Of a stretch of DNA of 64,000 nt, positions 1,287-51,868 are shown piece after piece. Numbering within the stretch: position 1 is the stretch's first letter; each line of letters opens with the position of its first letter. The notes below the pieces were generated by a model. It saw nothing but the letters and a program-made list of their open reading frames with translations. It was not told the origin of the DNA and did no database searches. The position numbers and the translations under genes are program-made. The stretch covers positions 62,001 through 126,000 of the forward strand of contig NZ_SLVM01000002.1 of assembly GCF_004339675.1 (NCBI RefSeq). Reading direction: 5' to 3'. Source of the stretch: Rhodovulum steppense (GTDB lineage: Bacteria; Pseudomonadota; Alphaproteobacteria; Rhodobacterales; Rhodobacteraceae).

Positions 1287-1288
1287 CC

Positions 1289-2260: not shown

Positions 2261-2261
2261 C

Positions 2262-9489: not shown

Positions 9490-9498
9490 TGCGGCCGC

Positions 9499-10185
9499 TC
9501 AGGCGGTCGCCAGCGCCTCCAGCCGTGCATGGGCCGACACGCCCTTCGTCTCCAGCGTCACGTCATGCAGGAAGCGGCCCAGCGCAAGGCTGGTGATGTG
9601 CATGCGCTGCTCGGTGAACTCGGCATCGAACAGCGTTGTCTCGATCAGCCCGCGCTCTTCCTCGTCCAGATCCAGCACCTGGGGTTCGGGGATGTCGGTC
9701 TGAACCGATACGAAGGTCAGCGGCGAAATCCGGGCCAGTGCGGATTGTTCGATCACCAGATGCAACTCGCCCGCCTTCAGCCCCCGTTTCGCGGCGATCC
9801 GGGTCAGGATCTCGCGGCCCCGGGCGCGTGCGATGTCGGCGCCGCGCTCGGCCTCTTCCTCGGGCATCAGGCGGCGGCGGCGTTCGGGGTTGTCGACCGA
9901 AAGCACGCGGGATTCGACCAGATAGACCACCAGGAACATCAGCGCGGGCGCCTGACCGATCGCCAGCGCATGTTCGGGCAGCATCAGGATCAGGACCGGG
10001 AACGGACTGAGCGCCAGCAGATAGCGCAGGAACGAGACCTCGACCACCATCCTTCGGTAAAGCGGACTGCCGAACGAGCCCCGCGGCAGGACCGAGAATC
10101 CATGCGCGAAAAGCCCCCGCGGCACCTTGCGGATCTTCATGGTCGAGGGGCTGGACACGGTCGAAGGCGTGATGACGTGAAGCAT
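9499..10185 (-). CDS. Membrane protein of unknown function
   Basis: I do not recognise this 228-residue protein. Two membrane segments are visible at about 50-69 and 76-92. A charged cytoplasmic C-terminal half follows, with an Arg-rich turn after the second helix and many Glu/Asp residues. The start at 10185 has an AGAGG site upstream; a second ATG 15 codons in is also possible. It ends ten bases from the stop of the VWA gene, on the opposite strand, and has no operon partner in view. Confidence 0.65.
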   Translation of the reverse strand: MLHVITPSTVSSPSTMKIRKVPRGLFAHGFSVLPRGSFGSPLYRRMVVEVSFLRYLLALSPFPVLILMLPEHALAIGQAPALMFLVVYLVESRVLSVDNPERRRRLMPEEEAERGADIARARGREILTRIAAKRGLKAGELHLVIEQSALARISPLTFVSVQTDIPEPQVLDLDEEERGLIETTLFDAEFTEQRMHITSLALGRFLHDVTLETKGVSAHARLEALATA

Positions 10186-10408
10186 GGCGCAGCCTCTGCT
10201 ATGTCGAAGACGAATAACTCTAGCCCCGCCCGGCCCGCCGTCCAGCCCGGTGCCCGGCAGGGATTCGACGCGCCGCCCGGCCCCTGCTAACCTGACGGTC
10301 GAGTCCGGGCCCGGCGGCCCGCCCCGCCGGGTGCGGCAAGAGCGGGGCATTGACCAAAGGGGGGCGCCCCCTTAACCCCGAAGACCGACAGCGACCGGAG
10401 GACGGCCC

Positions 10409-11017
10409 ATGCGACCCGCCAACGAAGCCCTGATCGTGATCGACGTGCAGAACGATTTCTGCACCGGGGGCGCGCTTGCCGTTCCCGGTGGCGAAGACGT
10501 GGTGCCGCGGATCAACACGCTGATGGACGAGTTCCAGACCCGCGTGCTGACCCAGGACTGGCACCCGGCCGACCACGCGTCCTTTGCGGCCAGCCACCCG
10601 GGCAAGCAGCCCTACGAGGTGGTCGAGATGCCCTATGGTCCGCAGATCCTGTGGCCTGTCCATTGCGTGCAGGACACGCCGGGCGCGGCCTTCCATGCCG
10701 ATCTCGACCTCACGCTGGCCGACCATGTCGTGCGCAAGGGCTTTCGCCCCGGGATCGACAGCTATTCGGCCTTCTTCGAGAACGATCACGAGACGCCCAC
10801 CGGGCTTGACGATTTCCTGACCGCGCGCGGGATCGACCAGTTGACGCTGGTGGGACTTGCCACCGATTTCTGCGTGCTCTACTCGGCGCTCGATGCCGCG
10901 CGTCTGGGCTATCGCGTGACGGTGATCGAGGGGGCGTGCCGCGGCATCGACCTGAACGGCTCGCTGGAAGACGCGCGCCAGGCGATGCTGGATGCGCATA
11001 TCGTGCTGGAGCCCTGA
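10409..11017 (+). CDS. pncA: Nicotinamidase
   Basis: PncA hydrolyses nicotinamide to nicotinate and ammonia in the NAD salvage (Preiss-Handler) route. The 202-residue protein has the full catalytic triad of the family, Asp12, Lys110 and Cys155 (in [10 protein letters not shown]), and the metal site Asp50, His52 and His56 in [16 protein letters not shown] site precedes ATG 10409. The next gene, pncB, uses its product and starts two bases after the stop, so the two steps of nicotinamide salvage are encoded as one operon. Confidence 0.95.
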
Positions 11018-11019
11018 GA

Positions 11020-12312
11020 ATGCTGGACATCGCCAAGCGGGTCTACAACCACCACTGGAAGATCGACCCGATTGTCCGCTCGCTGCTCGATACGGATTTC
11101 TACAAGCTGCTGATGTGTCAGTCGGTCTTTCGGAACCGGCCCGACACGCAGGTGACTTTCAGCCTGATCAACCGCACAACCGATATCCGGCTGGCCGAGC
11201 TGATCGACGAGGGCGAGTTGCGCGAGCAGCTTGACCATATCCGCACCCTGCGGCTGGCCCGCGGCGAAAGCACTTGGCTGCGCGGCAACACCTTCTACGG
11301 CAAGCGGCAGATGTTCCGCCCCGATTTCATGGAATGGTACGAGGGGCTGCAACTGCCGCCCTATCACCTGGAAAAGCGCGATGGGCAGTATGAACTGACC
11401 TTCGAGGGGCGCTGGCCCGAGGTGATGATGTGGGAAATCCCTGCGCTGGCCGTGCTGATGGAACTGCGCTCGCGCGCGGTGTTGCAGGCGATGGGCAAGT
11501 TCGAGCTTCAGGTGCTTTACGCCCGGGCCATGACCAAGCTTTGGGAAAAGATCGAGCGACTGCGCCCCGTCGAGGGGCTGAAACTGGCCGATTTCGGCAC
11601 GCGGCGGCGGCATTCCTTCCTGTGGCAGGACTGGTGCGTTCAGGCGATGATCGAGGGGCTGGGACCGAAATTCGTCGGCACCTCAAACTGCCTGATCGCG
11701 ATGCGACGCGATATCGAGGCGATCGGCACCAATGCCCACGAACTGCCCATGGTCTATGCTGCGCTGGCCGAGACCGACGAGGATCTGCGCCAGGCGCCCT
11801 ACAGGGTGCTGGCCGACTGGCACGAGGAGCATGACGGCAACCTGCGCATCATCCTGCCCGACACGTTCGGCACCAGGGGCTTTCTGCAGCACGCGCCCGA
11901 CTGGCTGGCGGGCTGGACCGGGATCCGCGTCGATTCCGGCGATCCCGTCGAAGGTGCCGAGACTGCCATCGCTTGGTGGACCGAACGCGGCGAGGACCCG
12001 CGCAAGAAGCTGATCATCTTCTCGGACGGGCTGGATGTGGACGTTATCACCGACCTGCACGCCCGGTTCGCGGGGCGCGCCCGGATCAGCTTTGGCTGGG
12101 GTACGTTGCTGACCAATGATTTCCGCGGGCTGGTGCCGGGTGACACGCTGGCGCCCTTCTCGCTGGTCTGCAAGGCCGTCAGCGCGAATGGTCGGCCGAC
12201 GGTCAAGCTGTCGGACAACCCCAACAAGGCGATGGGGCCAGCAGACGAGGTCGCGCGTTACAAGCGTGTCTTCGATGTGGGAGCGCAGCGCCCGCTCGAC
12301 GTCGTGGTCTGA
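11020..12312 (+). CDS. pncB: Nicotinate phosphoribosyltransferase
   Basis: PncB makes nicotinate mononucleotide from nicotinate and PRPP with ATP, the step after PncA. The protein is 430 residues, close to the E. coli type. It begins with the typical [15 protein letters not shown] substrate-binding stretch, and FGTRRRHS and GTSNCLIA, conserved around the active site, follow. The start at 11020 lies two bases after the pncA stop; a longer frame upstream only overlaps pncA out of frame. Its place with pncA supports the function. Confidence 0.95.
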
Positions 12313-38332: not shown

Positions 38333-39013
38333 TCAGGATACGGGGGCGTTCATCCGTGATGTGAATGCGCTTATGCAGGCGTCGACCGAGGCGGTTTGCT
38401 CGATCCGGCCCGGCGCCATGATGGCCAGGCGGTCGGCGTGTTCCATCGCCTCGTCTTGGTCATGGGTGACGAAGAGGATGGTCAGGCCGGTGCGCGCGCG
38501 CAATTCGTGCAGCAACTGCCAGAGTTTGGCGCGCACCGGGGCATCGAGCGCGCTGAAGGCTTCGTCGCAAAGCAGCAAATCCGGCGCGACCGCCAGCGCA
38601 CGGGCCAGCGCCACCCGCTGACGCATGCCGCCCGAAAGCTGGCGGGGGTATTTCCCTGCATCGCCGGGGCCCAGCCCGACCGCATCCAGCATCGCCCGGG
38701 CACGCGCGCGCCGCTCTGCCCGGCCAAGGCCCAAGCCGCGCAGCGCGAAGCCGACATTGCCCAGCGCCGTCTTCCAGGGCAGCAGCGCGGGGTCCTGGAA
38801 CACGATCCCCAGCCGGGCACAGCGCCGCGCGACCCGGCCCGCATCGGGGGTCAGCAGCCCCGCGGCCAGCGCGATCAGCGTGCTCTTGCCGCAGCCCGAC
38901 GGCCCCATCAGCGCGGTGATCGTGCCCGCGGGCAGCGACAGGTCAAGCCCGCGCAGCACCGGCCTGCCGTCATGGGCGAAATCGACGCCGTCAAGGCGCA
39001 GCGGTTCGGTCAT
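38333..39013 (-). CDS. NitT/TauT-type ABC transporter ATPase
   Basis: This 226-residue ATPase is of the SsuB/TauB type. Walker A is GPSGCGKST (37-45), the Q loop is GIVFQDPALLPWKT, the signature is LSGGMRQRV, Walker B is LLLCDEAFSALD and the switch His is in FVTHDQDEAM. It has the short length typical of this branch, with no TOBE domain. It overlaps the permease gene by ATGA and is the last gene of the hydrogenase operon. Confidence 0.9.
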   Translation of the reverse strand: MTEPLRLDGVDFAHDGRPVLRGLDLSLPAGTITALMGPSGCGKSTLIALAAGLLTPDAGRVARRCARLGIVFQDPALLPWKTALGNVGFALRGLGLGRAERRARARAMLDAVGLGPGDAGKYPRQLSGGMRQRVALARALAVAPDLLLCDEAFSALDAPVRAKLWQLLHELRARTGLTILFVTHDQDEAMEHADRLAIMAPGRIEQTASVDACISAFTSRMNAPVS

Positions 39014-39787: not shown

Positions 39788-40759
39788 CTAGCCCCAGTAG
39801 AAATCGGCATCGGGCAGGCGGTGCGCGACGATGCCCGGGGCCAGCGTCATGAGGTGCTGGAAATAGGTCTCGATATCCTGCTGCGCCTGCCGCGCGCTGG
39901 CCACGCCCAGCCGCACGAAGGGCAGCGAGCGGGCCACGATCTCGGGCGCAAGACCGAGATGCGGCGCGGCCAGCGCGCCCGCCGCCATGGGGTCGGCCTG
40001 CGCCCAATCGGCGGCCTCGATACAGGCGGCATGGGCGGCGGCGACGACTTCGGGCGCGCGGTCCAGAAATTCGGCGCTGACCGCCAGCCCCACCTGCGGA
40101 ATCCGCGGGCCGCGCCCGGTGTGCTGGCCATAGATCTCGGCGATGTCGAGCGCGCGGATCATGGGCAATCCTTCGCGTTCGGCGCGGATCTGCGCGGCCG
40201 TGGCGGCGGGTTCATGCAGCAGCGCCACATCGCCCCGCCCGGACAGGAACAGCGGCACCGCCTCGCCGGGCGAGCCGACATAGTCGAGCCGCAGATCGCG
40301 GTCGGGGTCCAGCCCGGCCCAGCCCAGCACCATGCGAAACAACAGATCCGGCGCCTCGTTCTTGTTCGACAGCAGCACCCGGCGGCCCGCCAGATCCGCG
40401 ATCGAGCGGATGCGGTCATCGCGCGCCATGACGTAGAGCACGCCCCAGGTCACGACATTCACCATGCGCGTGCCCGCGCCGCGATTGAAGAAATTGGCCG
40501 CGGCATAGGTGGAACTGGCAAACAGCCGGAACGCGCCCGAGGCGATGCCTGCGCGCAACTGGTCGGTGCTTTTCCAGATCTCGAACCGCGCGCCGGGGGC
40601 TGCGGCCTGAAATCGGTCAGAGGCCACCGCCCCGGCAAAGACCGCCGAAGGCGTGCCCGGAATACCCCAGAGAGTCAGCGGCTCCGCCCCTCGCGCCGGG
40701 GCCGCAAGGGGCAGCGCGGCCAGCCCGGCCAGCACCGCGCGGCGGTCGAGGGACGGCAT
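39788..40759 (-). CDS. NitT/TauT-type substrate-binding protein
   Basis: This 323-residue periplasmic binding protein is of the SsuA/THI5/NMT1 fold. The N terminus, LDRRAVLAGLAALPLAAPARGA, has twin arginines before a hydrophobic core, so export may be by Tat. The core TLWGIPGTPSAVF and the VLLSNKNEAPDLLFR hinge are as expected of this fold. It starts five bases after the hydA stop and four bases before the permease, so it is part of the hydrogenase transcript. The ligand is not evident. Confidence 0.82.
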   Translation of the reverse strand: MPSLDRRAVLAGLAALPLAAPARGAEPLTLWGIPGTPSAVFAGAVASDRFQAAAPGARFEIWKSTDQLRAGIASGAFRLFASSTYAAANFFNRGAGTRMVNVVTWGVLYVMARDDRIRSIADLAGRRVLLSNKNEAPDLLFRMVLGWAGLDPDRDLRLDYVGSPGEAVPLFLSGRGDVALLHEPAATAAQIRAEREGLPMIRALDIAEIYGQHTGRGPRIPQVGLAVSAEFLDRAPEVVAAAHAACIEAADWAQADPMAAGALAAPHLGLAPEIVARSLPFVRLGVASARQAQQDIETYFQHLMTLAPGIVAHRLPDADFYWG

Positions 40760-40764
40760 CGGGG

Positions 40765-42618
40765 TCAATAGACCATCGTGCTCATGGTGATGTCGTCCCA
40801 GATTTCCTTGACGGTGTGCTTCAGCTCGCGTCGGCGATCCTCGTAGCTCGTGTGCAGCAATTGGTGCGCAAGTTCCGAGTTCGGCGCGCCCAGGAAATCG
40901 CGGTACAACGCCTGCACCTGCGGGTTGTTGTGCGACTGGCGCACGCGGGCCGCGCGGTCGACCGCATAGATCGTTTCGCGCCGTTTCTGGGCCAGCGGCA
41001 GATACGCCTTTTTCGAACGCAGCGACCCGCCCCCATCGACGCAGCCGCCGGGGCAGGCCATCACCTCGATGAAATCGTAATCGGCCCTGCCTGCCAGCAC
41101 CGAGTCCACCAGCGCGCGCGTGTCGCCAAGCCCGTGGACCATGGCCACCCTGACCTCGCCCACCTGCCCGCCCAGATCGACGCGGGCCTCGCGGATGCCT
41201 TCGAAACCGCGCAACTGGGTCAGTTCGATCTGCTCCAGTTCGCGGCCGTTGACGATGGCGTAGACGGTGCGCAGCGCGGCCTCCATCACGCCGCCGGTGG
41301 TGCCGAAGATGGCACCCGCGCCGGAATATTCGCGCAAGAAGGGGCTGTCGAAGCCCGAGGGTTCCAGCGTCTTCAGGTCGATCCCCTCGCGGCGCAGCAG
41401 GCGGGCGAATTCGCGGGTGGTCAGCACCAGATCGGTATCGGGCCGCCCGTCCCGCGCCAGTTGCGGGCGCGTCGCCTCCTCTTTCTTGGCGACGCAGGGC
41501 ATGACCGAGATCACGCGGATCCGATCCGGCGCGACGCCCAGTTTTCCGGGCAGCCAGGTCTTGGCAATGGCCGACAGCACCTGTTGCGGCGACCGGGTCG
41601 AGGACAGAAGCGGCAGGATCTCGGGATAATGGATCTCGGCAAAGTCGATCCAGGCCGGGCAGCACGAGGTAAAGGTGGGCCGCCGCCCCGCCTTGAGCCG
41701 GCCCAGCAACTCGGCGCCTTCCTCCATGATGACGACGTCGGCGGCGAAATTGGTGTCCAGCACCACGTCGAAGCCGAGCTTGCGGCAGGCGGTGGCGATA
41801 TGGCCCTCGACATTGGTGCCGGGGGGCATGCCGAATTCCTCGCCAAAGGCGACGCGCACGGCGGGGGCGAATTGCACCACCGTCACAAGGTCGGGGTCGC
41901 AGATATAGTCGATGGCCCGGTCGGTCTCGTCGCGTTCGCCCAAGGCGCCGGTGGGGCAGACCAGCACGCATTGCCCGCAGGACACGCAGGCCGACGAGGG
42001 GTAATCCTCGGCGCCCCGCAGCGCCACCAGCCGGTCAAGCCCGGTGCCCTCCATCGCCAGCGCGTCGACCTGCTGGTGATGGCGGCAGATCGCGACGCAG
42101 CGCTGGCAGCGCACGCAGCGGCGCATGTCGCGCACCATCGCGGGCGAGGTCAGGTCGATGGGCCGCGCCTCGGTCCGGGCACGGTCGAAGAAACGGTTTT
42201 CCTTGAGACCCACGAACTGCGCCAGATCCTGCAATTCGCAATCGCCATGCCGGATGCAGGTCGCGCAATCCTGCAAATGGTCGGCCATCAGCAGTTCCAC
42301 CTGCAAGCGCTGCATGTCGCGCGCGCGCTTGCTGCGGGTCCGCACCTCCATCCCGTCGCGGATGGGCGTGTTGCAGGCGGTCACGATCTGCGGCGCGTCA
42401 TGGCCGGCCTGCACGATCTCGACCACGCAGACGCGGCAGGTGCCGGGGGTGTGGTCGATGTCGTCCAGTTCGCACAGCGTCGGGATATAGATGTCATGCC
42501 GCCGCGCACAGGACAGGATGGTTTCGTTCGCCCGGCCGGTGCAGGGCGTCCCGTTGAGGATCAGCGCCACGGTCTCGGGCGCGTCGGGGCCGGGTGTGTC
42601 GGGGCCGGAGGTGCACAT
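40765..42618 (-). CDS. hydA: [FeFe]-hydrogenase catalytic subunit
   Basis: This 617-residue cytoplasmic [FeFe]-hydrogenase is of the CpI-like modular type. In order it has a [2Fe-2S] domain (Cys49, 61, 64, 82), a His-Cys3 [4Fe-4S] site (His114, Cys118, 121, 127), two ferredoxin [4Fe-4S] clusters (Cys168-178 and Cys211-221) and the H-cluster domain. The H-cluster motifs are complete: L1 TSCCPAW (317-323), L2 MPCVAKK (373-379) and L3 MACPGGC (520-526). It would evolve or oxidise H2. It starts three bases after the NuoF-GltD fusion stop. No HydE, HydF or HydG maturase is in the window, and the enzyme needs them. Confidence 0.93.
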   Translation of the reverse strand: MCTSGPDTPGPDAPETVALILNGTPCTGRANETILSCARRHDIYIPTLCELDDIDHTPGTCRVCVVEIVQAGHDAPQIVTACNTPIRDGMEVRTRSKRARDMQRLQVELLMADHLQDCATCIRHGDCELQDLAQFVGLKENRFFDRARTEARPIDLTSPAMVRDMRRCVRCQRCVAICRHHQQVDALAMEGTGLDRLVALRGAEDYPSSACVSCGQCVLVCPTGALGERDETDRAIDYICDPDLVTVVQFAPAVRVAFGEEFGMPPGTNVEGHIATACRKLGFDVVLDTNFAADVVIMEEGAELLGRLKAGRRPTFTSCCPAWIDFAEIHYPEILPLLSSTRSPQQVLSAIAKTWLPGKLGVAPDRIRVISVMPCVAKKEEATRPQLARDGRPDTDLVLTTREFARLLRREGIDLKTLEPSGFDSPFLREYSGAGAIFGTTGGVMEAALRTVYAIVNGRELEQIELTQLRGFEGIREARVDLGGQVGEVRVAMVHGLGDTRALVDSVLAGRADYDFIEVMACPGGCVDGGGSLRSKKAYLPLAQKRRETIYAVDRAARVRQSHNNPQVQALYRDFLGAPNSELAHQLLHTSYEDRRRELKHTVKEIWDDITMSTMVY

Positions 42619-42621
42619 GGC

Positions 42622-44604
42622 TCAGACCGCTCCTTCGGGGATGGGATGGCCGGTAAGGACCGTGTAGACGCGATAGCAGCGCATGCAGCGCTGCGCCTCG
42701 GCATAGGCGGCCCTGGCGCTGATCGTCTGCTCGACCTCCTCGAACATGCGCTTGCGCAATTCGGGGTCGAGTTCGGGATTGTGCACGCGATAGGCGTTGC
42801 GCACCGGCGTCTCGACCACGTCATTGGCCAGGAAATCGTTGTCGGCGATCAGCTTGCGCATCCGCGCACGCTTGTAGAACCTGACCGAACCGCGCTGGAT
42901 CCAGTCGTCGATATTGCGCGCGGCCTTCAGCCCGTCGGCCATCGCCCAGATCAGCGTCGAGGGGCCGGTGACGCAATCGCCCCCCGCAAAGACACCCGGC
43001 CGCGAGGTGGTGAGCGCATCATCCGCGGCCACGCAGCGCCAGCGGTCCAGCGCGATGCCGTCCGCCTCGATCCGGCTGCCATCCTCGACCTGCTGGCCGA
43101 TGGCCGCGATCAGCGTGTCGCAGGGCAATGTCACCTCGCTGCCGGGGATCGGGCGGACCTTGCGCCGGCCGCTGTCGTCGGGCTCGCTCTGTTCCATCTG
43201 CGCGACCACCACGCCGGTGACGCGGCCCGCCTGGGTCAGCACGCGGACCGGGTTGCAAAGCGTGTGAAAGGTCACGCCCTCGGCCTCGGCATCCGCGATC
43301 TCGCCGGGATCGGCGGGCATGTCCGCGCGGGTGCGACGGTAAAGGACATGCACGCGCCCCGCCCCCAGCCGGATCGCCGAGCGCACGCAATCCATCGCGA
43401 CATTGCCCCCGCCGACCACCAGCACCTCGCCCGACAAGGACAGCGGCACCTTGCCCGCGACATGGTCATGGACCCGCAGAAGGAAGTCGATGCCGCTGAA
43501 ATAGCCGGCGCGCGCCTCGTCCTCGCCCGCGACCCCCAACCGCGAGCCCGCCTGGCAACCGAGCCCCAGGAACACCGCCCGGTAGCCGCGCGCGAACAGA
43601 TCGTTGATGCTGAAATCGCGGCCGAGCTGCTGGCCGAACAGGAAGCGCCCGCCCAGATCGGCGATGATTTCGGTTTCCAGCGCCAGCGTGTCCTTGGGCA
43701 GCCGGTAGGCGGGAATGCCGATCTGCGCCATGCCGCCCGCCTGGCTTGCCTTGTCGAACACATCGACGTGATAGCCGCGCAGCAGCAGATGATAGGCGCA
43801 GGAAATCCCCGCCGGACCCGCACCGACCACCGCCACCCGCATGGCCGGATCCAGCGGTTTGCGGATCATGTCGCGGGTGAATTCCAGCGCGTTCGGGCCG
43901 CTTTGCTGGTCGGCGACAAAGCGTTTCAGGGTCTTGATCCCCACCGCCTCGTCCACGAACTTGCGTCGGCAGGCCTGTTCGCAATAGCGCACGCAGACCC
44001 GCCCGCAGGTCGCCGCCATCGGGTATTTCTGCAACAGAACCCCCAGCGAGTTCTCGGGCTTGCCGTCGCGGATATAGTCGATATAGCGCGGCACGTTGAC
44101 CTTGGAGGGGCAGGCCTCGATGCAGGGGGCGGTCATGTAGGCCATGCCATGCTGGGCGCGGATCGGGCGTTTCGGGGCCAGTTCGGCCTCGATCCGGCCG
44201 CGGAAATGGCCCAGCGCATCCAACAGCGCCACCGCACAGGTCTGGCCCAGACCGCAAAGCGAGGTTTCGCGCATCTGCTCGCCCAGCATCGCGATCTGAT
44301 CCAGATCCAGCGGTGCATCCAGCCCGCGCCGCATCGCGTCCAGCGCGTCGCGCACCAGCACCGTGCCCATCCGGCAGGGCGTGCAGACGCCACAGGATTG
44401 TTCGGCCGCCTTGCGCATGTAGTGGTAAAGCGCGTCCACAAGGCTGACGCTTTCATCGAACACGAAGAATCCGCGGTCGCCGAAAAAGGCGCGGATCGGG
44501 TTGCCCTCGTCGAACTCGTCGAAATTGCGGGGCTCAAGGGTGGCTTGCCCTGCCTGCCGGTCATGGACGACCCCGTCCCAGACCCCATAGGCCACCTGTG
44601 TCAT
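42622..44604 (-). CDS. NuoF(C-terminal)-GltD fusion, hydrogenase NAD(P)H partner
   Basis: This 660-residue fusion starts with about 145 residues like the C-terminal iron-sulfur part of NuoF/HydB, with a [4Fe-4S] site at Cys71, 74, 77 and Cys117. The NADH/FMN-binding domain that normally precedes it is missing. From about 155 it is a GltD/NfnB-like domain with ferredoxin-type cysteines (161, 165, 200, 204, 208, 212), the FAD motif VVGAGPAGISCA (259-270), a second NAD(P)H Rossmann motif VVGGGNVAMD and ATG-like FAGGDCVTGPST. It therefore likely passes electrons between NAD(P)H and HydA. AAAGGAG precedes the ATG at 44604. Confidence 0.88.
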   Translation of the reverse strand: MTQVAYGVWDGVVHDRQAGQATLEPRNFDEFDEGNPIRAFFGDRGFFVFDESVSLVDALYHYMRKAAEQSCGVCTPCRMGTVLVRDALDAMRRGLDAPLDLDQIAMLGEQMRETSLCGLGQTCAVALLDALGHFRGRIEAELAPKRPIRAQHGMAYMTAPCIEACPSKVNVPRYIDYIRDGKPENSLGVLLQKYPMAATCGRVCVRYCEQACRRKFVDEAVGIKTLKRFVADQQSGPNALEFTRDMIRKPLDPAMRVAVVGAGPAGISCAYHLLLRGYHVDVFDKASQAGGMAQIGIPAYRLPKDTLALETEIIADLGGRFLFGQQLGRDFSINDLFARGYRAVFLGLGCQAGSRLGVAGEDEARAGYFSGIDFLLRVHDHVAGKVPLSLSGEVLVVGGGNVAMDCVRSAIRLGAGRVHVLYRRTRADMPADPGEIADAEAEGVTFHTLCNPVRVLTQAGRVTGVVVAQMEQSEPDDSGRRKVRPIPGSEVTLPCDTLIAAIGQQVEDGSRIEADGIALDRWRCVAADDALTTSRPGVFAGGDCVTGPSTLIWAMADGLKAARNIDDWIQRGSVRFYKRARMRKLIADNDFLANDVVETPVRNAYRVHNPELDPELRKRMFEEVEQTISARAAYAEAQRCMRCYRVYTVLTGHPIPEGAV

Positions 44605-44704: not shown

Positions 44705-46564
44705 TCAGAGCGGCCAGGCCACCAGCAGAAGCGGCAGGCTGACCACGACCACCAGAATCTCCAGCGGCAGGCCAAGCCGCCAGTAATCGCCAAAGCGAAA
44801 GCCGCCGGGGCCCAGGATCAGCGTGTTGTTCTGATGCCCGATGGGGGTCAGGAACGCGCAGGAGGCCCCGATCGCCACCGCCATCAGAAAGCTGTCGGGA
44901 TTGACACCGAGCGCCGCGGCGATGCCCAGCGCGACCGGGCACAGCACGGCGGCGGTGGCGGCGTTGTTCATCACGTCCGACAGGAACATCGTCGTCACCA
45001 GCACCACCGCCAGCGCCGCGACGGCATTGCCCTGCGCGATGGTCTCGACCAGCACGCGCGCCAGCAGATCGGCCGCACCCGTTGCCTGCATCGCACCCGC
45101 CACCGGGATCAGCGCGCCCAGCAGCACGATCACCGGCCAGTCGATCGCGGAATAGACCTGCCGGGGCGGCACCGTGCGCAGCAGCATCGAGGCCAGGACC
45201 CCGAGCGCAAAGGCCGGGGCCGCGGGCAGAAGACCCAGCGTGACAAGGGCAACGGCGCCCAGCATGATCGCGCCCGCGATGATCGCCATGCGCTTGTCGG
45301 GGATGCGCAGTTCCCGCTCGCGCAGGGGCACGCAGCCGGTATCGTTGACGAAATCGGCCATCACCTCGGCCGGCCCCTGCATCAGCAACAGATCGCCCGA
45401 GCGGATCCGCAGCGACCGCAGCCGGGTCGGCGGCGGCCGCCCCTCGCGCGAGACGGCCAGCAGGTTCAGCCCGAACCGCGTGCGCAGCCGAAGATCGGTA
45501 GCCGATCGTCCCACGATGCTGGACCCCGGCAGAACGGCCAGTTCCCGCAGCACGATATCCTCGTCTCGGTCCGGCTTGTCCTCGGCGCTCTTCTCGTCAT
45601 GCTTGCCTGCGCCATCTTCCGCGACGTCCTGCGGTCGCGACCCGGGCGCCGTGTCGCCTGCCTCTTCCGAGGATGGACCCTGCTCCTCCAGTTCGATGCC
45701 GAACAGCGCCAGCGCCTCGGCCAGTCCCTCGACATCGGCATCCAGAACCAGGATGTCGCCCGCGCGGATGCGTCGGCCGCCATGGGGCGCGGTGATGCGG
45801 ACCTCGTTGCGCACGAGACCGACCACCTGCGCGCCGCTCTCCTCGATCTCGCGTTCGAAGCCGCGCAGGGTCAGGTGAACGGCCTTGCTCTTTTCGGGCA
45901 CGCGCACCTCGGTCAGATAGGTGCCGGTGTCGAACGCCTTTCCTGTGGCCGATTTGCGCGCGGGCACCAGCCGCCAGCCGACCAGCACCACGAACAGCAC
46001 GCCCGCCAAAGCCACCGCGACGCCCACGGGCGCGAAATCGAACATGCCGAAATGCCCCGGCCCCGCCTCGGCGCGAAAGCCCGAGACGATCAGGTTCGGC
46101 GGCGTGCCCACCAGCGTCGTCATCCCGCCCAGGATCGTCCCGAAAGCCAGCGGCATCAGCACCTGTCCCGGCATCAGGTCCAGCCGCCCGGCAAGCTGCA
46201 CCGCGACCGGCATCAACAGCGCCATGGCGCCGACATTGTTCATGAACCCCGACAGCGCCGCACCCAGCCCCATCAGCGCGGCCATGCTGGCCAGTCGCCC
46301 GGCCTCGCGCGGCAGAACGCTGCGCGCCAGCCAGTCCACCGCGCCGGTGGTCTGCAGCCCGTGGCTCAGCACCAGCACGCAGGCCACCGTGATCACCGCC
46401 GGGTGGCCGAATCCCGCAAAGGCGTCCGCGGCCGGAACGACGCCCGCGACGACGCAGGCCAGAAGTGCCGCCAGCGCCACCACGTCATGGCGATAGCGCC
46501 CCCACAGGAACGCCGCCAGCGTGGCGCCAAGGATTGCGAAGATCAGGAACTGGTCCGCGCTCAC
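44705..46564 (-). CDS. SLC13-family permease with RCK_C domains
   Basis: This 619-residue inner-membrane protein has two blocks of about five to six helices (residues about 1-190 and 430-619), each with a GTPPNLIV/AFLTPIGHQNN type ion-binding turn. Between them lie two cytoplasmic TrkA-C (RCK_C) domains joined by a charged acidic linker. Such SLC13/DASS-like proteins take up sulfate or dicarboxylates with Na+ or H+. It starts with GTG 46564 after GGAGG. It lies between the phosphonate and hydrogenase operons, in the same direction; the gap to the fusion gene is 100 bases. Confidence 0.83.
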   Translation of the reverse strand: MSADQFLIFAILGATLAAFLWGRYRHDVVALAALLACVVAGVVPAADAFAGFGHPAVITVACVLVLSHGLQTTGAVDWLARSVLPREAGRLASMAALMGLGAALSGFMNNVGAMALLMPVAVQLAGRLDLMPGQVLMPLAFGTILGGMTTLVGTPPNLIVSGFRAEAGPGHFGMFDFAPVGVAVALAGVLFVVLVGWRLVPARKSATGKAFDTGTYLTEVRVPEKSKAVHLTLRGFEREIEESGAQVVGLVRNEVRITAPHGGRRIRAGDILVLDADVEGLAEALALFGIELEEQGPSSEEAGDTAPGSRPQDVAEDGAGKHDEKSAEDKPDRDEDIVLRELAVLPGSSIVGRSATDLRLRTRFGLNLLAVSREGRPPPTRLRSLRIRSGDLLLMQGPAEVMADFVNDTGCVPLRERELRIPDKRMAIIAGAIMLGAVALVTLGLLPAAPAFALGVLASMLLRTVPPRQVYSAIDWPVIVLLGALIPVAGAMQATGAADLLARVLVETIAQGNAVAALAVVLVTTMFLSDVMNNAATAAVLCPVALGIAAALGVNPDSFLMAVAIGASCAFLTPIGHQNNTLILGPGGFRFGDYWRLGLPLEILVVVVSLPLLLVAWPL

Positions 46565-46639: not shown

Positions 46640-47461
46640 TCAGATGATCGCGTGCCGCACCCGGGCCGAGACCCATTCGCTGACCACGACGGTCGCCAGG
46701 ATCACCAGGATAATCAGCGTGACCTGCGGCCAGGCCAGCACGTTCAGGCTGGCCTGAAGCTGCGCCCCGATGCCGCCCGCGCCCACCAGCCCGAGGATCG
46801 CGCTTTCGCGGATGTTGATATCCCAGCGGAACACAGAGATGCCGTAGAAGCTGGGCAGCACCTGCGGCACGATCCCGTAATTCAGGATCTGCGCCTTGGT
46901 CGCCCCGGTGGCGGTGATCGCCTCGATCTGGGCGATATCCGTCTCCTCGATCGCCTCGTAAAGCAGCTTGCCGATGAAGCCGACCGAGCGGAAGCCGATG
47001 GCAAGGATCCCCGCAAGGATCCCGGGGCCCAGGATCGACACCAGCAGCAGCGCCCAGATCAGCGAGTTGATCGAGCGGCTGGCCACGATGCAGAACAGCG
47101 CGACGGGCCGCAGGATCATCCGCGAGGGCGTGGTGTTCGAGGCCGCCAGGAAGGCCAGCGGAACCGCCAGCACGATGCCCAGCAGCGTGCCCAGCGTGGC
47201 GATGTTGATCGTGTCCCACAACGGCTGCCAAAGCCTGTCCATATACGACCAGCGCGGCGGCCAGGCGCGGCTGGCCAGGTCGGCCGCGGCATGGGGCGCG
47301 TCATAGACGAAGACCCACATCGTGCGTTCCGTCATGATGTTCCAGCACCAGACGAACAGCGCGACCAGCCCCAGCCATCCGGCATAGATCGCCAGTCGGC
47401 CAAGAAGGGTGCGGTGGTGCCAGACGGGACGTTCGGCGGCGGGAATGTCGGTCACGCTCAT
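46640..47461 (-). CDS. phnE: Phosphonate-type ABC permease, PhnE2
   Basis: This 273-residue permease is the second of a PhnE pair. It has a long first periplasmic stretch after helix 1 and the coupling region QIEAITATGATKAQIL then RWDINIRESAILG, a PhnE family hallmark. The start at 47461 overlaps the stop of the upstream permease (ATGA). It works with PhnE1, PhnC and PhnD for import of phosphonates, phosphate esters or phosphite. Confidence 0.9.
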   Translation of the reverse strand: MSVTDIPAAERPVWHHRTLLGRLAIYAGWLGLVALFVWCWNIMTERTMWVFVYDAPHAAADLASRAWPPRWSYMDRLWQPLWDTINIATLGTLLGIVLAVPLAFLAASNTTPSRMILRPVALFCIVASRSINSLIWALLLVSILGPGILAGILAIGFRSVGFIGKLLYEAIEETDIAQIEAITATGATKAQILNYGIVPQVLPSFYGISVFRWDINIRESAILGLVGAGGIGAQLQASLNVLAWPQVTLIILVILATVVVSEWVSARVRHAII

Positions 47462-48297
47462 TGCACCCACCTGCGCAGATAGCCCGAGGAATATTCCGAG
47501 ATCATCACGATGGCGATGATGATGAGCAGCACCGCCCCCGCGCTGTCGTATTCATAGCGGTTCAGCGCGGTGTTCAGCGTCGCCCCGATCCCGCCCGCGC
47601 CGACGATGCCGATCACGGCGGATTCGCGGAAATTGATGTCGAGCCGGTAGAGCGACAGCCCGATCAGTCGCGGCATGACCTGCGGCTGGATCGCGTAGTT
47701 GATCAACTGGAACCACGAGGCGCCGGTCGCCCGGATCGCCTCGGCCTGGGATTCGTCGATATCCTCGATATCCTCGGCCAGCAGCTTGCCGATGAAGCCG
47801 ATGGTGGCAAAGGTCAGCGTCAGGAACCCCGCAAAGGCGCCAAAGCCGAACAGCGCCACGAAGAAGATCGCGACGATGATTTCCTGCAACGCGCGGGACA
47901 CGGCGATGATCCCGCGGCAGATCGCGTAGATCCAGCGTGGCGCCACATTCCGCGCCGCGCCGATGCCGATGGGGATCGAGATCAGGACGCCGACCACGGT
48001 CGAGGTCAGCGTCATCGTCAGGCTCTCGATCAGCCCGGTAGAGATGTCGCGCCAGCGGGTGGTGAAATCGGGCTGAAGGAACCCCGCGATGAAGCGCTGG
48101 CCGCGCTCCATCCCGACCATGACGCGCTGCCAGTTCACCTCGATGGTACCAAGGGCCAGCACCAGCCAGACCAGCGCCCCGATGGCAAGCGCATAGCGCC
48201 AGAAGCGCGACTTGATCATCTGCGGCGGGCGCTTCCACCGCGTCGGATAGGTGCCCGGGGACATGCCCGGGGACACGGGGGCGGCGGTGTCGGTCAC
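47458..48297 (-). CDS. phnE: Phosphonate-type ABC permease, PhnE1
   Basis: This 279-residue permease starts with GTG 48297 inside the phnC stop (GTGA). It has about six helices and the conserved [15 protein letters not shown] and [21 protein letters not shown] segments. It forms a heterodimer with the downstream PhnE2. Marine Rhodobacteraceae commonly have such phnCDE1E2 sets without C-P lyase next to them, as here. Confidence 0.9.
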
Positions 48298-49121
48298 AGC
48301 GCCCTCATCATCTTCTTGGCCTCGTCGCGCTGTTCGGCCTCGGCGGCCTCGTCCTCGGCGGCGGCCTGGCGCATCGCGGTCCAGTCCTCCTCGCCATAGA
48401 TCTGGGTCAGGACCGCTTCGGTCAGCCCCGTTGCCGGACCGTCGAAGACCACCCGGCCCGCCTGCAACCCGATGATCCGGTCGGCGAATTGCTGGGCCAG
48501 GACCACGTCATGGATGTTGATGATCGCAGGCAGGCCGCTTTCGCGGCAGATCTCGACGATCAGCCGCATGATCTGGCGGCTGGTCTTGGGGTCGAGGCTG
48601 GCGGTGGGTTCATCCACCAGCAGCAGCTCGGGATCCTGTTCCAGCGCCCGGGCGATGCCCACCCGCTGGCGCTGCCCGCCCGACAGCGCATCGGCGCGCT
48701 TGTCGGCATGGGCCGACAGGCCGACGCGATCGAGCAGGCGAAACGCCTTGGCAATGTCCTCGCCGGGAAAGCGGCGGGTGAAGCTGCGCCAGAACGGCAC
48801 ATAGCCCAGCCGCCCGGACAGAACGTTCTCCATGACCGTCAACCGCTCGACGAGGGCGTATTCCTGAAAGATCATCCCGATCCGCCGCCGTGCCCGGCGC
48901 AGCTCGCCCGCGCGCAGGCGGGTGATGTCCAGATCGTTCAGCCGCACCGTCCCCTCGGTCGGCTCCACCAGCCGGTTGACACAGCGGATCAGCGTGGACT
49001 TGCCCGCGCCCGACGGCCCGATCAGCCCCACGACCTGCCCCTTGGGCACGGTAAAGCTGACATCGGTCAGCGCCTTGTCGCCGGTCTTGTAGACCTTGGT
49101 CAGCTTGTCGACGCTCAGCAT
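48294..49121 (-). CDS. phnC: Phosphonate-type ABC ATPase PhnC
   Basis: This 275-residue ATPase has Walker [10 protein letters not shown] (35-43), signature [14 protein letters not shown], Walker [14 protein letters not shown] and the switch His in INIHDVVLA. The [24 protein letters not shown] stretch is typical of PhnC. A C-terminal acidic tail of about 30 residues is extra. GGAGG precedes the ATG. It lies between phnD and the two permeases, the usual order. Confidence 0.92.
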
Positions 49122-49189
49122 GGGGCCTCCGCTCGGGACAGGGAAAACGGCAGGCGAGGGGCGCCTGCCGTGTGCATGTTCATATCGAG

Positions 49190-50140
49190 TCAGTTGCAGG
49201 TATAACTGACGCCGGTCGCGGCATCGATCTCGCGCACCACCGACCAGTGTTCCTGGAAGGTGATGGGCATGAACTCGTCCATGTCGAAGGGCGAGAACTC
49301 CTGCTGCAGCCGCGTGCCCTCCCAGTCGAAGGAGAAGAAGGCTTCGCGGATCCTGTCCTGCAATTCGGGGGTCAGGTTGTGGACCACGCCGTAGCCGGTG
49401 GTCGGGAACGGATCGGATTCATAGACTGTCCGGATATCTGCAAGGTCGATCACGTCGCGCGCTGCCATGCGGATCATCACCTCGTCGGCGATGGCGGCCG
49501 CGTCGTAATCCCGGTTCACGACGCCCAGCACCGAATTGTCATGCGCACCGGAAAAGGCCGGGGTATAGTTGGTGCCCGGCTCCCAGCCGAACATCTCGCG
49601 CAAGAGCGCCGAAGGTGCCTTGTAGCCGGAATTCGAGGTTTCCGAGGTAAAGGCCAGCGTCAGGCCCTCGATATCGGCCAGGTCCGCGATGTCGCTGTCG
49701 ACATGGGTGATGAAGGCCATCCGATAGCCATAGCTGCCATCCTTCGCCGCCATGATCGCGAAGGGACGAAAGCCCGCGCAGGCCACGGCCAGCGGGTTCG
49801 CGCCGGTGTTGAAACCCGCGACATGCAGACGACCCGCACGCATCGCCTCGATCTGGGCGGCGTTGGACTGGACCGGGAAGAACTGAACCGGTTTGCCGGT
49901 CGCTTCCGACAGGTGGTCGATGAACTCGGCCCAGACCTCGGCATAGACGGCCGGATCCTCCACAGGCGTGTAGGCGAAGATCAGAACCGAAGGATCGACC
50001 AGTTGCGCCGGGTCGGTGGGAATGTCGGCGATCAGGTCGCCATCGGCATCCGTGAAGCGCGGATCGAGCGTGAAATCGGCCGCAACAGCCGCACCGGCAA
50101 GCATGGCCGACAGGGCCACCGAGGTGACGAGGGTCTTCAT
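49190..50140 (-). CDS. phnD: Phosphonate-type binding protein PhnD (second copy)
   Basis: This 316-residue periplasmic binding protein has a signal peptide (about 1-20). It has [38 protein letters not shown] and the [15 protein letters not shown] ligand region expected of PhnD. It is about two-thirds identical to the neighbouring copy at 50230-51177, with one nearly unchanged DNA tract. It may bind phosphonate, phosphite or phosphate esters. A 68-base gap separates it from phnC. Confidence 0.9.
49821..49900. repeat. Near-identical tract shared by the two phnD copies (copy 1)
   Basis: The 80 bases at 49821-49900 match 50861-50940 at 78 positions, with differences only at the 12th and 72nd bases, while the genes around the tract are clearly diverged. 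Recent gene conversion between the copies, or strong selection on this ligand-domain segment, could explain it. Confidence 0.85.
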
Positions 50141-50161
50141 GTGGTCGTTCTCCCTGACTGG

Positions 50162-50184
50162 GCCGACGGGACCGTCCCGTCGGC
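50162..50184 (-). promoter_or_regulatory. Hairpin between the two phnD genes
   Basis: A 10-bp perfect stem, GCCGACGGGA (50162-50171) and TCCCGTCGGC (50175-50184), has a three-base loop and sits between the tandem binding-protein genes. It has no T tract and is likely an RNA processing or stability element. Confidence 0.55.
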
Positions 50185-50229
50185 GCGATGCCTTGGCCGG
50201 GGCAGACCCCGGTCCGTGACATTCTTGTG

Positions 50230-51177
50230 TCAGTTACAGGTGTACTGCACGCCCATCGCCGCATCAATCTCGCGGATCACCGACCAGTTGTCCTTGAAGG
50301 TGATCGGGATGAACTGCGCCTCGCCCGAGCGCTCGAACTCGGCCTGCAGCGTCGTGCCTTCCCAGTCGAAGCTGAAGAACGCCTCGCGCACCTTTTCCTG
50401 CAGGTCGGGATGCAGGTTGTAGACCGTGCCGTAGCCGGTGGTGGGGAAGGTGTCGGACTGGTAGATCACGACCAGTTGATCCTCGGTAATCACGCCACGG
50501 TCGAGCATCCGCGCCTTCACCGAGTTGGCAATGGCGGCGGCATCGTAATCCTTGTTCGCGACGCCAAGGATCGAGTTGTCATGCGCGCCCGAGAAGGCCG
50601 GGGTGAAATCCGCGCCCGCCTCCATGCCATATTGCGCCGCCAGCAGCGCCGAGGGAGCCTTGAACCCCGAGTTCGAGGTCTCGGAGGTAAAGGCCATGGT
50701 GCGGCCCTTGATGTCCTCGACCTTCTCGATGCCCGAACCGGGATAGGTGATGAATTCCATCTCGTAGCCGAAGCTGCCATCGGCGGCGGCCATCATCGCA
50801 AAGGGACGGAAACCCGCACAGGCCACCGCCAGCGGGTTCGAGCCGGTGTTGAAGCCCGCCACATGCAGACGGCCCGCACGCATCGCCTCGATCTGGGCGG
50901 CGTTGGACTGGACCGGGAAGAACTGAACCGGCTTGCCGGTCACGGCCTCCATATGGGTCAGGAAATCCGACCAGGCTTCGGCATAGACGGCCGGATCCTC
51001 GACCGGCGTGTAGGCGAAGATCAGAACCGAGGGGTCAATCCACTGGGCGGCATCCTCGGGGATGTCGGCAATGAGGTCGCCATCGGCATCGGTGAATCGC
51101 GCATCAAGCTGGAAGGCGGCGGCGGGCAGTGTCAGCACGGCGGACAGGGCGACGGTCGAGAAGAGACGGGCGATCAT
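50230..51177 (-). CDS. phnD: Phosphonate-type binding protein PhnD (first copy)
   Basis: This 315-residue binding protein has a signal peptide (about 1-21, PAAAF). The same motif set as the downstream copy is present, ending in an almost identical QYTCN tail. It is the first gene of the phnDDCEE unit, with a Pho box 63 bases before its ATG at 51177. Having two binding proteins for one transporter suggests a wider range of ligands. Confidence 0.9.
   Translation of the reverse strand: MIARLFSTVALSAVLTLPAAAFQLDARFTDADGDLIADIPEDAAQWIDPSVLIFAYTPVEDPAVYAEAWSDFLTHMEAVTGKPVQFFPVQSNAAQIEAMRAGRLHVAGFNTGSNPLAVACAGFRPFAMMAAADGSFGYEMEFITYPGSGIEKVEDIKGRTMAFTSETSNSGFKAPSALLAAQYGMEAGADFTPAFSGAHDNSILGVANKDYDAAAIANSVKARMLDRGVITEDQLVVIYQSDTFPTTGYGTVYNLHPDLQEKVREAFFSFDWEGTTLQAEFERSGEAQFIPITFKDNWSVIREIDAAMGVQYTCN
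50861..50940. repeat. Near-identical tract shared by the two phnD copies (copy 2)
   Basis: This is the partner of 49821-49900, offset by 1,040 bases, with 78 of 80 positions identical. Confidence 0.85.
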
Positions 51178-51239
51178 TGGACGAGACCTCGGAATTGGAA
51201 AGGACTGTCCGGCGGGTAGTCTGGCCACATGAAGATCGC

Positions 51240-51268
51240 CTGACGGTTTTGTTAACTTTTTGTGACAG
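51240..51268 (-). promoter_or_regulatory. Candidate Pho box before phnD
   Basis: On the minus strand three 7-base units, CTGTCAC (51268-51262), AGTTAAC (51257-51251) and CCGTCAG (51246-51240), are each separated by four A residues. The 11-base spacing and the sequences fit the PhoB binding consensus of CTGTCAT-like repeats. It ends 63 bases before the phnD ATG, so induction at low phosphate is expected. Confidence 0.75.
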
Positions 51269-51289
51269 GCGCCGTCCGACGCGTCCGGC

Positions 51290-51868
51290 CTATTCGATCG
51301 GAGCGATGTCAAGCCGGATGCGCGCATACCAGTCTGCGGCGGCCCGGATTTCCTCGTCGGTCATCTCGGCAGCGATTTCGGACATGATCGCGTGACGGCG
51401 CTTGCCGCTGCGGAACGCCTTGAGCTGGGTGTCGATGTAGATGTTGACCTCGCCCGCAAGGTTCGGCGCATTCAGCGCGACCGAAATGCCGTCGACCCCG
51501 TGGCAGGACACGCAGGCGACCGGCGCATCGGCGGCGCTGACACCGTCGGGCAGGGTTGCCGTGGCGACATGCGCGGCATACCAGGCCGCCACATCCGAAA
51601 TCTGCTGCGCCGACAGGCTGGTGGATACGACCGACATGATCTCGTGCTCCCGCGCGCCGGTCTTGAAGGCCATCAGTTGGGCCTCGATATACTCCTTCGG
51701 CTCGCCGCCGATATGGGGGGCAATCGGAACCTGCGCATAGCCGTCCAGTCCATGACAGGTCCGGCACATGTTCGCGACCTGCCGTCCGGCCTCCGGATCC
51801 TCGGCCAAGGCAGGGCCGCCCCCGGCGAGCGCAAGCCCGCCGAGGACGAAAAGCACCGAAAGCCGCAT
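51290..51868 (-). CDS. Diheme cytochrome c (c4-like)
   Basis: This 192-residue periplasmic protein has a signal peptide (about 1-22) and two CxxCH haem sites, CRTCH (35-39) and CVSCH (119-123), each followed by an IM or HAIM type methionine, as in c4-like or class I diheme cytochromes. Its start overlaps the stop of the PQQ dehydrogenase by one base (TAATG). It most likely takes electrons from that dehydrogenase and passes them to the respiratory chain. Confidence 0.88.
   Translation of the reverse strand: MRLSVLFVLGGLALAGGGPALAEDPEAGRQVANMCRTCHGLDGYAQVPIAPHIGGEPKEYIEAQLMAFKTGAREHEIMSVVSTSLSAQQISDVAAWYAAHVATATLPDGVSAADAPVACVSCHGVDGISVALNAPNLAGEVNIYIDTQLKAFRSGKRRHAIMSEIAAEMTDEEIRAAADWYARIRLDIAPIE

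What the first reader, a model, noticed from the sequence alone, without database searches (positions are those of the whole stretch)
40765..44604. [FeFe]-hydrogenase operon with a truncated-NuoF/GltD partner in a purple bacterium
Seen: a 617-residue HydA with all H-cluster cysteines (TSCCPAW, MPCVAKK, MACPGGC) and N-terminal clusters, coupled to a fusion of only the C-terminal iron-sulfur part of NuoF with a GltD/NfnB-like flavoprotein. The NADH/FMN domain of NuoF and any NuoE-like subunit are missing. Known: [FeFe]-hydrogenases are uncommon in Alphaproteobacteria (reported for example in Rhodospirillum rubrum and some Rhodopseudomonas), and typical bifurcating partners are NuoE/NuoF types. 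Inferred: an NAD(P)H-linked hydrogenase, perhaps a redox valve, with an unusual partner that could work with NAD(P)H alone or bifurcate.
Basis: partly seen in the sequence, partly recalled or inferred. Interest (0 to 1): 0.82.

Follow-up and report, generated by a model that had tools for sequence, protein, structure and literature searches.

The report
Maturase-less NADP-linked iron hydrogenase operon
A purple bacterium carries an intact-looking iron-only hydrogenase wired to a probable NADP(H) module, yet the known genes for building that enzyme's iron-carbonyl-cyanide centre were not found in its genome or in those of related bacteria with the same pair, so either a new assembly route or a new job for the enzyme may await discovery.

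Summary
In detail: a 617-aa group-A [FeFe]-hydrogenase (HydA) follows a 660-aa fusion of the NuoF C-terminal [4Fe-4S] domain and a GltD/NfnB-type FAD-NADP(H) domain. This is a known kind (close to HydDB group A2), and relatives of the fusion also occur beside molybdopterin oxidoreductases. Nothing supports bifurcation: the NuoF FMN/NADH domain, a NuoE-like subunit and NfnA are missing from the operon. A close relative, StnC, is reported as a non-bifurcating subunit. The surprise lies outside the given coordinates. HydE, HydF and HydG were not found in the 99.98% complete genome, nor in 17 other genomes carrying the same pair (18 distinct; 12 belong to purple-bacterial genera by name or kinship; one is in 2 contigs). 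In 7 of 18 HypD was not found either. Yet 18 of 18 HydAs keep the H-cluster cysteines and proton path, and the pairs tested show purifying selection. In what I could search, missing maturases are noted for Rhodospirillum rubrum but not for these genera. An NMT1-type ABC importer directly follows hydA and often accompanies maturase-less copies. Best reading: an NADP(H)-linked hydrogenase activated without HydEFG. Main rival: a HydA repurposed without its diiron site. No activity was measured.

The parts
42622..44604 (-). Fusion protein, 660 aa: NuoF-C [4Fe-4S] (N3-like) domain, residues about 30-146, plus GltD/StnC-type domain with two predicted [4Fe-4S] clusters, FAD and NADP(H) sites, residues about 157-643
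   Evidence: Pfam and NCBIfam; cysteines 71, 74, 77, 117, 161, 165, 200, 204, 208, 212, 640 and 643 invariant in 29 of 29 aligned; AF2 mean pLDDT 84.4; Foldseek best hits 9bov_A, 8oh5_C, 9n5u_A
40765..42618 (-). HydA, 617 aa group-A [FeFe]-hydrogenase catalytic subunit with NuoG-like N-terminal Fe-S chain, H-domain and small-subunit domain
   Evidence: TIGR02512 511 bits over cut-off 406; PF02906, PF02256; nearest solved chain 8a6t_A, electron-bifurcating hydrogenase subunit HydA1
39788..40759 (-). NMT1/SsuA-like ABC substrate-binding protein, 323 aa, with a twin-arginine-looking signal (DRRAVLAGLAALPLA, my reading); starts 5 nt after the hydA stop
   Evidence: Pfam NMT1_2 / NMT1; gap read directly; AF2 pLDDT 92.9; Foldseek nearest 3hn0, then PqqT 9b1v at 20% identity
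39010..39810 (-). ABC permease, overlaps the substrate-binding gene by 23 nt
   Evidence: BPD_transp_1 6.2e-15
38333..39013 (-). ABC ATPase, overlaps the permease gene by 4 nt
   Evidence: ABC_tran 1.2e-28
44705..46564 (-). SLC13/CitMHS-type transporter with TrkA_C domains upstream; among the loci compared a homologue was found only in R. tesquicola (L010), so probably not part of the system

Best explanation
The operon encodes a soluble two-site H2:NADP(H) oxidoreductase of the HydDB-A2 kind. Shown: domain order, conserved cofactor ligands, operon layout, and no detectable HydE, HydF or HydG in this genome and in 17 others with the pair. Inferred: NADP(H) exchanges a hydride with FAD in the GltD domain; electrons pass one at a time over its two [4Fe-4S] clusters and the NuoF-type N3 cluster into HydA's NuoG-like chain and so to the H-cluster, reversibly, without bifurcation. 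By the standard potentials (recalled) H2 to NADPH is the favourable direction. Inferred and least sure: because the catalytic residues are kept while the known maturases are missing, the H-cluster's diiron part is made or obtained by a route that does not use HydEFG.
For: Own genome: no HydG or HydE match at E<=1e-3; HydF only generic GTPases, best 69.6 bits against a cut-off of 325.6. The same searches find HydG over cut-off in 29 of 50 fusion-bearing genomes and HydF in 26 of 50 mixed genomes, so they work. 18 distinct maturase-less genomes: no HydG match, HydE never over cut-off, HydF never over cut-off; G447 is 2 contigs, 100% complete. In 18 of 18 of their HydAs the cysteines C319, C320, C375, C522, C526, the proton-path residues E300, E303, S339 and S343, P344, Q345, M373, P374, K378, F438, M520 are kept; R307 in 16 of 18. 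H-domain dN/dS is 0.11-0.35 in nine maturase-less pairs, which cover 10 of the 18. L012 (named Rhodopseudomonas) holds fusion, hydA and the ABC genes nested in the Rhodovulum clade, as if the cassette moved without maturases and was kept (or the record is misnamed). Non-bifurcating: no FMN domain, NuoE or NfnA in the operon; StnC reported non-bifurcating. Title seen only in a reference list: Kim et al. [quoted passage not shown] A review mentions mixed reports of HydA activation in cyanobacteria without added maturases (PMC7460606 passages).
Against: No activity, spectrum or expression data. HydEFG are described as essential (PMC7460606 passages). PMC4967309 reports earlier conclusions that R. 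[quoted passage not shown] H-domain columns invariant in 17 non-alpha HydG+ sequences are broken more often in maturase-less HydAs (mean 9.6 of 82 for random sets of 11 of the 18, range 5-12) than in 11 alphaproteobacterial HydG+ ones (5 of 82), while N-terminal columns show no excess (3.0 against 4 of 52): mild relaxation of the H-domain. The [NiFe] Hyp route cannot be the common source of CN/CO: HypD was not found in 7 of 18, the window's genome included. Against 'non-bifurcating': the nearest solved chain belongs to an NfnABC complex titled electron bifurcating (9bov), whose paper I did not read, and R301, the equivalent of NfnB R201, is kept.
Confidence: 0.43

Rival explanations
1. HydA has lost its diiron site and carries only the [4Fe-4S] half-cluster (or another ligand); the pair is an NADP(H)-linked Fe-S oxidoreductase or redox sensor with a new substrate, as proposed in general terms for R. 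rubrum.
For: No known source of the diiron cofactor was found. Mild relaxation confined to the H-domain. PMC4967309 reports earlier authors' view.
Against: The proton path and the residues around the diiron site are kept in 18 of 18 across two separate clades down to 63% pairwise identity; a protein needing only a cubane should have lost them.
Confidence: 0.3
2. Maturases exist but were missed: too divergent for the profiles, or on an unassembled replicon.
For: Absence is always relative to the models and assemblies; most of the 18 genomes are drafts, some are MAGs (one of only 1.3 Mb), and no whole genome could be laid for a scan of my own.
Against: In alphaproteobacterial (or unplaced proteobacterial) genomes with the pair, HydG scores 505-648, HydF 493-546 and HydE 271-321 bits with the same models; a hidden HydG would have to fall below E=1e-3, although that model reports matches in 7 of 14 control genomes, 6 of them below the cut-off. 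Absence repeats in 18 genomes forming coherent clades, one in 2 contigs.
Confidence: 0.14
3. The diiron cofactor or a precursor is taken up from outside, perhaps by the ABC importer that follows hydA, so that the cell lives on cofactor released by neighbours.
For: Substrate-binding and permease genes lie within the fetched flank (up to 8 kb) in 11 of 14 maturase-less loci against 6 of 24 HydG+ loci with usable flanks; 5 of those 6 are Pleomorphomonas, of which one species is reported to have two M3-type HydAs (PMC4967309 table). A different triad lies directly behind hydA in two Desulfobacterota MAGs without HydF or a HydG over cut-off, L040 and L043. The fold is near PqqT, a PQQ-binding protein, among others.
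Against: On independent pairs the association never goes the other way but cannot reach significance (3 pairs, or 5 with the two MAGs). Four Rhodoplanes/Blastochloris-clade loci lack it nearby, one of them with almost no downstream flank. L049, with HydG, has the second kind of triad too. Ligand unknown; nearest folds are also sulfonate and thiamin-precursor binders. No free diiron cofactor is known as a nutrient (recalled).
Confidence: 0.08
4. The genes are relics: maturases were lost recently and hydA and the fusion are decaying.
For: HydG and HydF genes sit beside the pair in several HydG+ loci, such as L051, so loss is easy to picture.
Against: Uninterrupted frames of about full length in the 18 maturase-less hydA copies, dN/dS well below 1 in the nine pairs tested, and at least 3 changes of state forced by starred branches, with deep clades on the maturase-less side.
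Confidence: 0.05

Closest known systems
HydDB [FeFe] group A2, 'glutamate synthase-linked (putative)' (PMC5037454, passages read)
   Same: Group-A catalytic subunit coupled to a GltD-type protein; role listed as undetermined.
   Different: HydDB's rule looks for GltD and not NuoF in the protein downstream; here the GltD protein is upstream and carries a NuoF C-terminal domain, and the downstream gene is an ABC binding protein. No maturases found in the genome.
StnC of the Sporomusa ovata Stn transhydrogenase, and the related NfnABC large subunits (8oh5_C, 9bov_A, 9n5u_A)
   Same: GltD-type FAD-NADP(H) domain including the C-terminal RCxxC motif.
   Different: StnC works with StnAB, which bifurcates; here no FMN module is encoded beside it and HydA is the partner.
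Electron-bifurcating HydABC (8a6t, 7q4v)
   Same: HydA is closest in sequence to their HydA subunits; the NuoF C-terminal [4Fe-4S] domain is shared.
   Different: HydB's FMN/NADH domain and HydC are missing from the operon.
Rhodospirillum rubrum [FeFe]-hydrogenase reported without maturases (PMC4967309, first of five parts and passages read)
   Same: Alphaproteobacterial purple bacterium, HydA-type protein, no HydEFG.
   Different: That paper's main text does not hold the words Rhodovulum, Rhodoplanes, Blastochloris or GltD. I did not test whether the R. rubrum protein is of the A2 kind.
Entamoeba [FeFe]-hydrogenase without maturases (PMC4967309 Table 1)
   Same: HydA retained, all three maturases listed as absent.
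   Different: Eukaryote with other HydA types; a very low activity (0.04 in the table's unit) of the recombinant Entamoeba enzyme from E. coli is listed in PMC7460606.

Membership tests
Group A [FeFe]-hydrogenase (TIGR02512) | Score over the curated cut-off; H-cluster motifs L1-L3 | tested here: met
   511 bits against 406; motifs; residue map from the alignment to C. pasteurianum hydrogenase I
Group A [FeFe]-hydrogenase, as an active enzyme | HydE, HydF and HydG in the genome | tested here: not met
Group A [FeFe]-hydrogenase, as an active enzyme | H-cluster with CO/CN ligands, H2 activity | not testable with these tools
   needs spectroscopy and assay
HydDB group A2 | GltD-type protein coupled to the catalytic subunit | tested here: met
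HydDB group A2 | GltD found downstream and no NuoF domain in that protein (HydDB's literal rule) | tested here: not met
   fusion lies upstream and carries PF10589 and a partial nuoF_fam match; works like A2, literal rule failed; the HydDB server itself was not run
NCBIfam NF040763, NADH-dependent group A6 | Score over cut-off 765 | tested here: not met
   719.4 bits
Electron-bifurcating HydABC (A3) | HydB with FMN/NADH domain and a HydC (NuoE-like) subunit beside HydA | tested here: not met
   only the NuoF C-terminal part, no NuoE in the operon; elsewhere in the genome not searched
NfnAB transhydrogenase | NfnA subunit with [2Fe-2S] and second FAD | tested here: not met
   no such gene in the operon; elsewhere in the genome not searched
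Glutamate synthase small subunit (GltD) | Score over TIGR01317/01318/01316 cut-offs; large subunit next to it | tested here: not met
   175, 286 and 328 bits against 448, 483 and 472; neighbours are HydA and transporters

The most novel reading that the evidence does not exclude
Several lineages of purple bacteria build or obtain the H-cluster of a [FeFe]-hydrogenase without HydE, HydF or HydG, and at least some without the Hyp machinery, by a route not yet described, possibly involving the co-encoded ABC importer.
Probability: 0.35. Interest if true: 0.92.

Novelty: new variant of a known kind. Interest (0 to 1): 0.62.

Why it matters
HydA proteins in organisms without maturases (R. rubrum, Entamoeba) are an old puzzle. 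This operon puts the puzzle into cultured phototrophs with a contrast set: Pleomorphomonas and Magnetospirillum fulvum have the same pair plus HydEFG; the Rhodovulum, Rhodoplanes and Blastochloris genomes tested have the pair without. If the enzyme is active, a second way to make an iron-carbonyl-cyanide centre exists; if not, a conserved hydrogenase active site has been kept for another use. Either answer would be new to me, and it would decide whether such genomes should be counted as H2 producers.

Tried and rejected
Bifurcation: disfavoured for lack of FMN domain, NuoE and NfnA in the operon. Plain glutamate synthase subunit: rejected. Hyp proteins as the shared source of Fe-CN-CO: rejected as a general answer, HypD not found in 7 of 18 maturase-less genomes (two of the seven, G019 and G022, are MAGs). 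Loss of H-cluster ligands in maturase-less HydAs: looked for, not found; GGGS instead of GGGQ after the last motif is not a signature, since HydG+ members have T, N, H or I there too. Neighbourhood scan for a replacement maturase: 39 loci (13 maturase-less, 26 others), no family near the pair in both maturase-less clades except the ABC genes (my gene calling there was crude). SLC13-like gene upstream: among the compared loci found only in R. tesquicola. My first mapping of E282, R286 and F417 was off by one and was corrected. Paper searches listed, by title and abstract start, no paper on maturase-less [FeFe]-hydrogenase in Rhodovulum, Rhodoplanes or Blastochloris; the one listed paper holding both 'FeFe hydrogenase' and Rhodovulum was checked and is unrelated (PMC10423856 passages). 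Most subscription papers, Kim 2008 included, are not held.

Rows dropped: the tree left out L058, L072, L088, L067, L010 and L153 (near copies) and uses SH-aLRT support only; one search also left out short contigs L015, L031, L042, L017, L037 and L050, and L154. G437, G439 and G450 are the same genomes as G002, G007 and G001 (equal contig lengths), so the 21 rows are 18 distinct genomes; recounted. One search took 50 of the 80 loci. One search tested 35 of those 50 genomes for HydF and 15 class-scan positives; one search tested 31 of the 50 for HydE. The fusion alignment used for the model holds 29 rows; the first try had 38, and I left out L069 and eight others.
Full report
What is there. On the minus strand the fusion (44604-42622), HydA (42618-40765), a substrate-binding protein (40759-39788), a permease (39810-39010) and an ATPase (39013-38333) follow each other with gaps of at most 5 nt or overlaps, which I read as one operon. 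The window itself holds a reaction-centre gene and its cytochrome subunit, so it is a purple bacterium.

The fusion. Residues 30-146 match only the end of NuoF/HydB; the FMN/NADH part is missing. Residues 157-643 match GltD-like proteins, best the NfnABC/StnC large subunits by sequence and fold. Twelve cysteines placed for clusters are invariant in 29 of 29 aligned members: four in the NuoF part, six in the GltD N-terminal part, and two in a C-terminal RCMRC. That last motif is also where the match to StnC ends; I infer that it completes a cluster of the GltD part. Among one search's loci, relatives of the fusion also stand near proteins with Molybdopterin and Molybdop_Fe4S4 domains (6 of 6 partners scanned, of 17 loci whose neighbour is not a HydA), so it looks like an exchangeable NADP(H) module. 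NADP(H) rather than NAD(H) is inferred from this kinship, not shown.

Kind. HydDB lists group A2, GltD-linked, role undetermined (PMC5037454 passages). This pair works like that, but HydDB's literal rule (GltD downstream, no NuoF) is not met. NCBIfam's group A6 model is missed (719 against 765 bits).

No known maturases found. In the window's genome HydG and HydE give no match and HydF only generic GTPases. Of 50 genomes holding the fusion, 29 have HydG over cut-off, 14 have no match at all, 7 lie between. Of those 7, four have HydF (G020, G026, G027, G047) and three do not (G025, G031, G034), all three MAGs. The 14 also lack HydF at 1e-30 and any HydE over cut-off; three of them have weak HydE-model matches of at most 42.7 bits. 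In the genus 7 of 16 genomes have HydA, and in none of the 7 did HydG, HydE or HydF pass; three of the 7 are among the 14. Distinct maturase-less genomes: 18. One is a 1.3-Mb MAG (G022), one (G447) is 2 contigs and 100% complete. By genus name or kinship 12 of the 18 are Rhodovulum, Rhodoplanes, Blastochloris or Rhodopseudomonas; phototrophy was tested only in the window. HypD was not found in 7 of 18: G000, G447, G001 (same genome as G450), G003, G008, G019 and G022.

The active site is kept. Mapping to C. pasteurianum hydrogenase I (proton-path residue names from PMC6226526 passages; cluster-ligand and pocket roles recalled): the cysteines and the E279, E282, S319, S323, P324, Q325, M353, P354, K358, F417 and M497 equivalents are present in 18 of 18; the R286 equivalent in 16 of 18. 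Among HydG+ rows 4 of 28 have Ser at one of the two adjacent cysteines. dN/dS in the H-domain is 0.11-0.35 for nine maturase-less pairs and 0.08-0.25 for seven HydG+ pairs. Against this, H-domain columns are broken somewhat more often in maturase-less HydAs, with no excess in the N-terminal part.

History. In a 60-row quick tree (SH-aLRT only) maturase-less HydAs form two supported clades (11 rows, 100; 6 rows, 99) plus L031 and L041; at least 4 changes, 3 forced by starred branches. The tree cannot tell gain from loss. L012, named Rhodopseudomonas pentothenatexigens, sits inside the Rhodovulum clade with the ABC genes in the same order; I read this as transfer of the cassette without maturases, unless the record is misnamed.

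The importer. Substrate-binding and permease genes are near the pair in 11 of 14 maturase-less and 6 of 24 HydG+ loci with usable flanks; in R. euryhalinum (L016) the ATPase was not found nearby. The direction is consistent but, corrected for kinship, not significant. The ligand is unknown; folds nearby bind PQQ, sulfonates and thiamin precursors.

Literature. PMC4967309 (first part and passages) states that R. rubrum has HydA but no maturases and that earlier authors thought it inactive or repurposed, and lists Pleomorphomonas, Phaeospirillum and Pararhodospirillum as having HydEFG; this agrees with my HydG+ set (L018, L020 Pleomorphomonas; L030 Magnetospirillum fulvum, recalled as a former Phaeospirillum). 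Kim et al. 2008 was seen only as a title in a reference list.

Verdict. An ordinary kind of hydrogenase module in an extraordinary genomic setting. I favour activation by an unknown route (0.43) over loss of the diiron site (0.30); this is judgement, and an assay would settle it.

Noticed in passing
L157 (G203:C1:1896000-1915900), 9385-11454 minus: A different 690-aa group-A-like HydA with an extra C-terminal stretch and no fusion in the 20 kb, in a 9-contig, 100% complete alphaproteobacterial genome where HydG, HydF, HydE and HypD were not found either.
   Followed up: partly
G080, G124, G125, G219, G364 (L123, L131, L126, L128, L137): Five small alphaproteobacterial genomes (1.1-1.5 Mb) with HydA but no HydG, no HydF over cut-off and no HydE. 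G194 lacks HydG and HydF (HydE not tested); G425 lacks HydG (HydF and HydE not tested).
   Followed up: no
L040, L043: Desulfobacterota MAGs with the A2 pair, no HydF, no HydG or HydE over cut-off, and an ABC triad of another subfamily directly behind hydA.
   Followed up: partly
L069, L077, L083: The Mo-pterin protein near the fusion ends after about 80 residues of the Molybdopterin domain; a selenocysteine TGA may explain it; not checked.
   Followed up: no
window 46640-51327: Phosphonate-type ABC set with two PhnD-like binding proteins in tandem (49190-50140 and 50230-51327), an ATPase and two permease-like genes, of which one was scanned.
   Followed up: no
window 1211-3353: Photosynthetic reaction-centre subunit and its cytochrome subunit.
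   Followed up: yes
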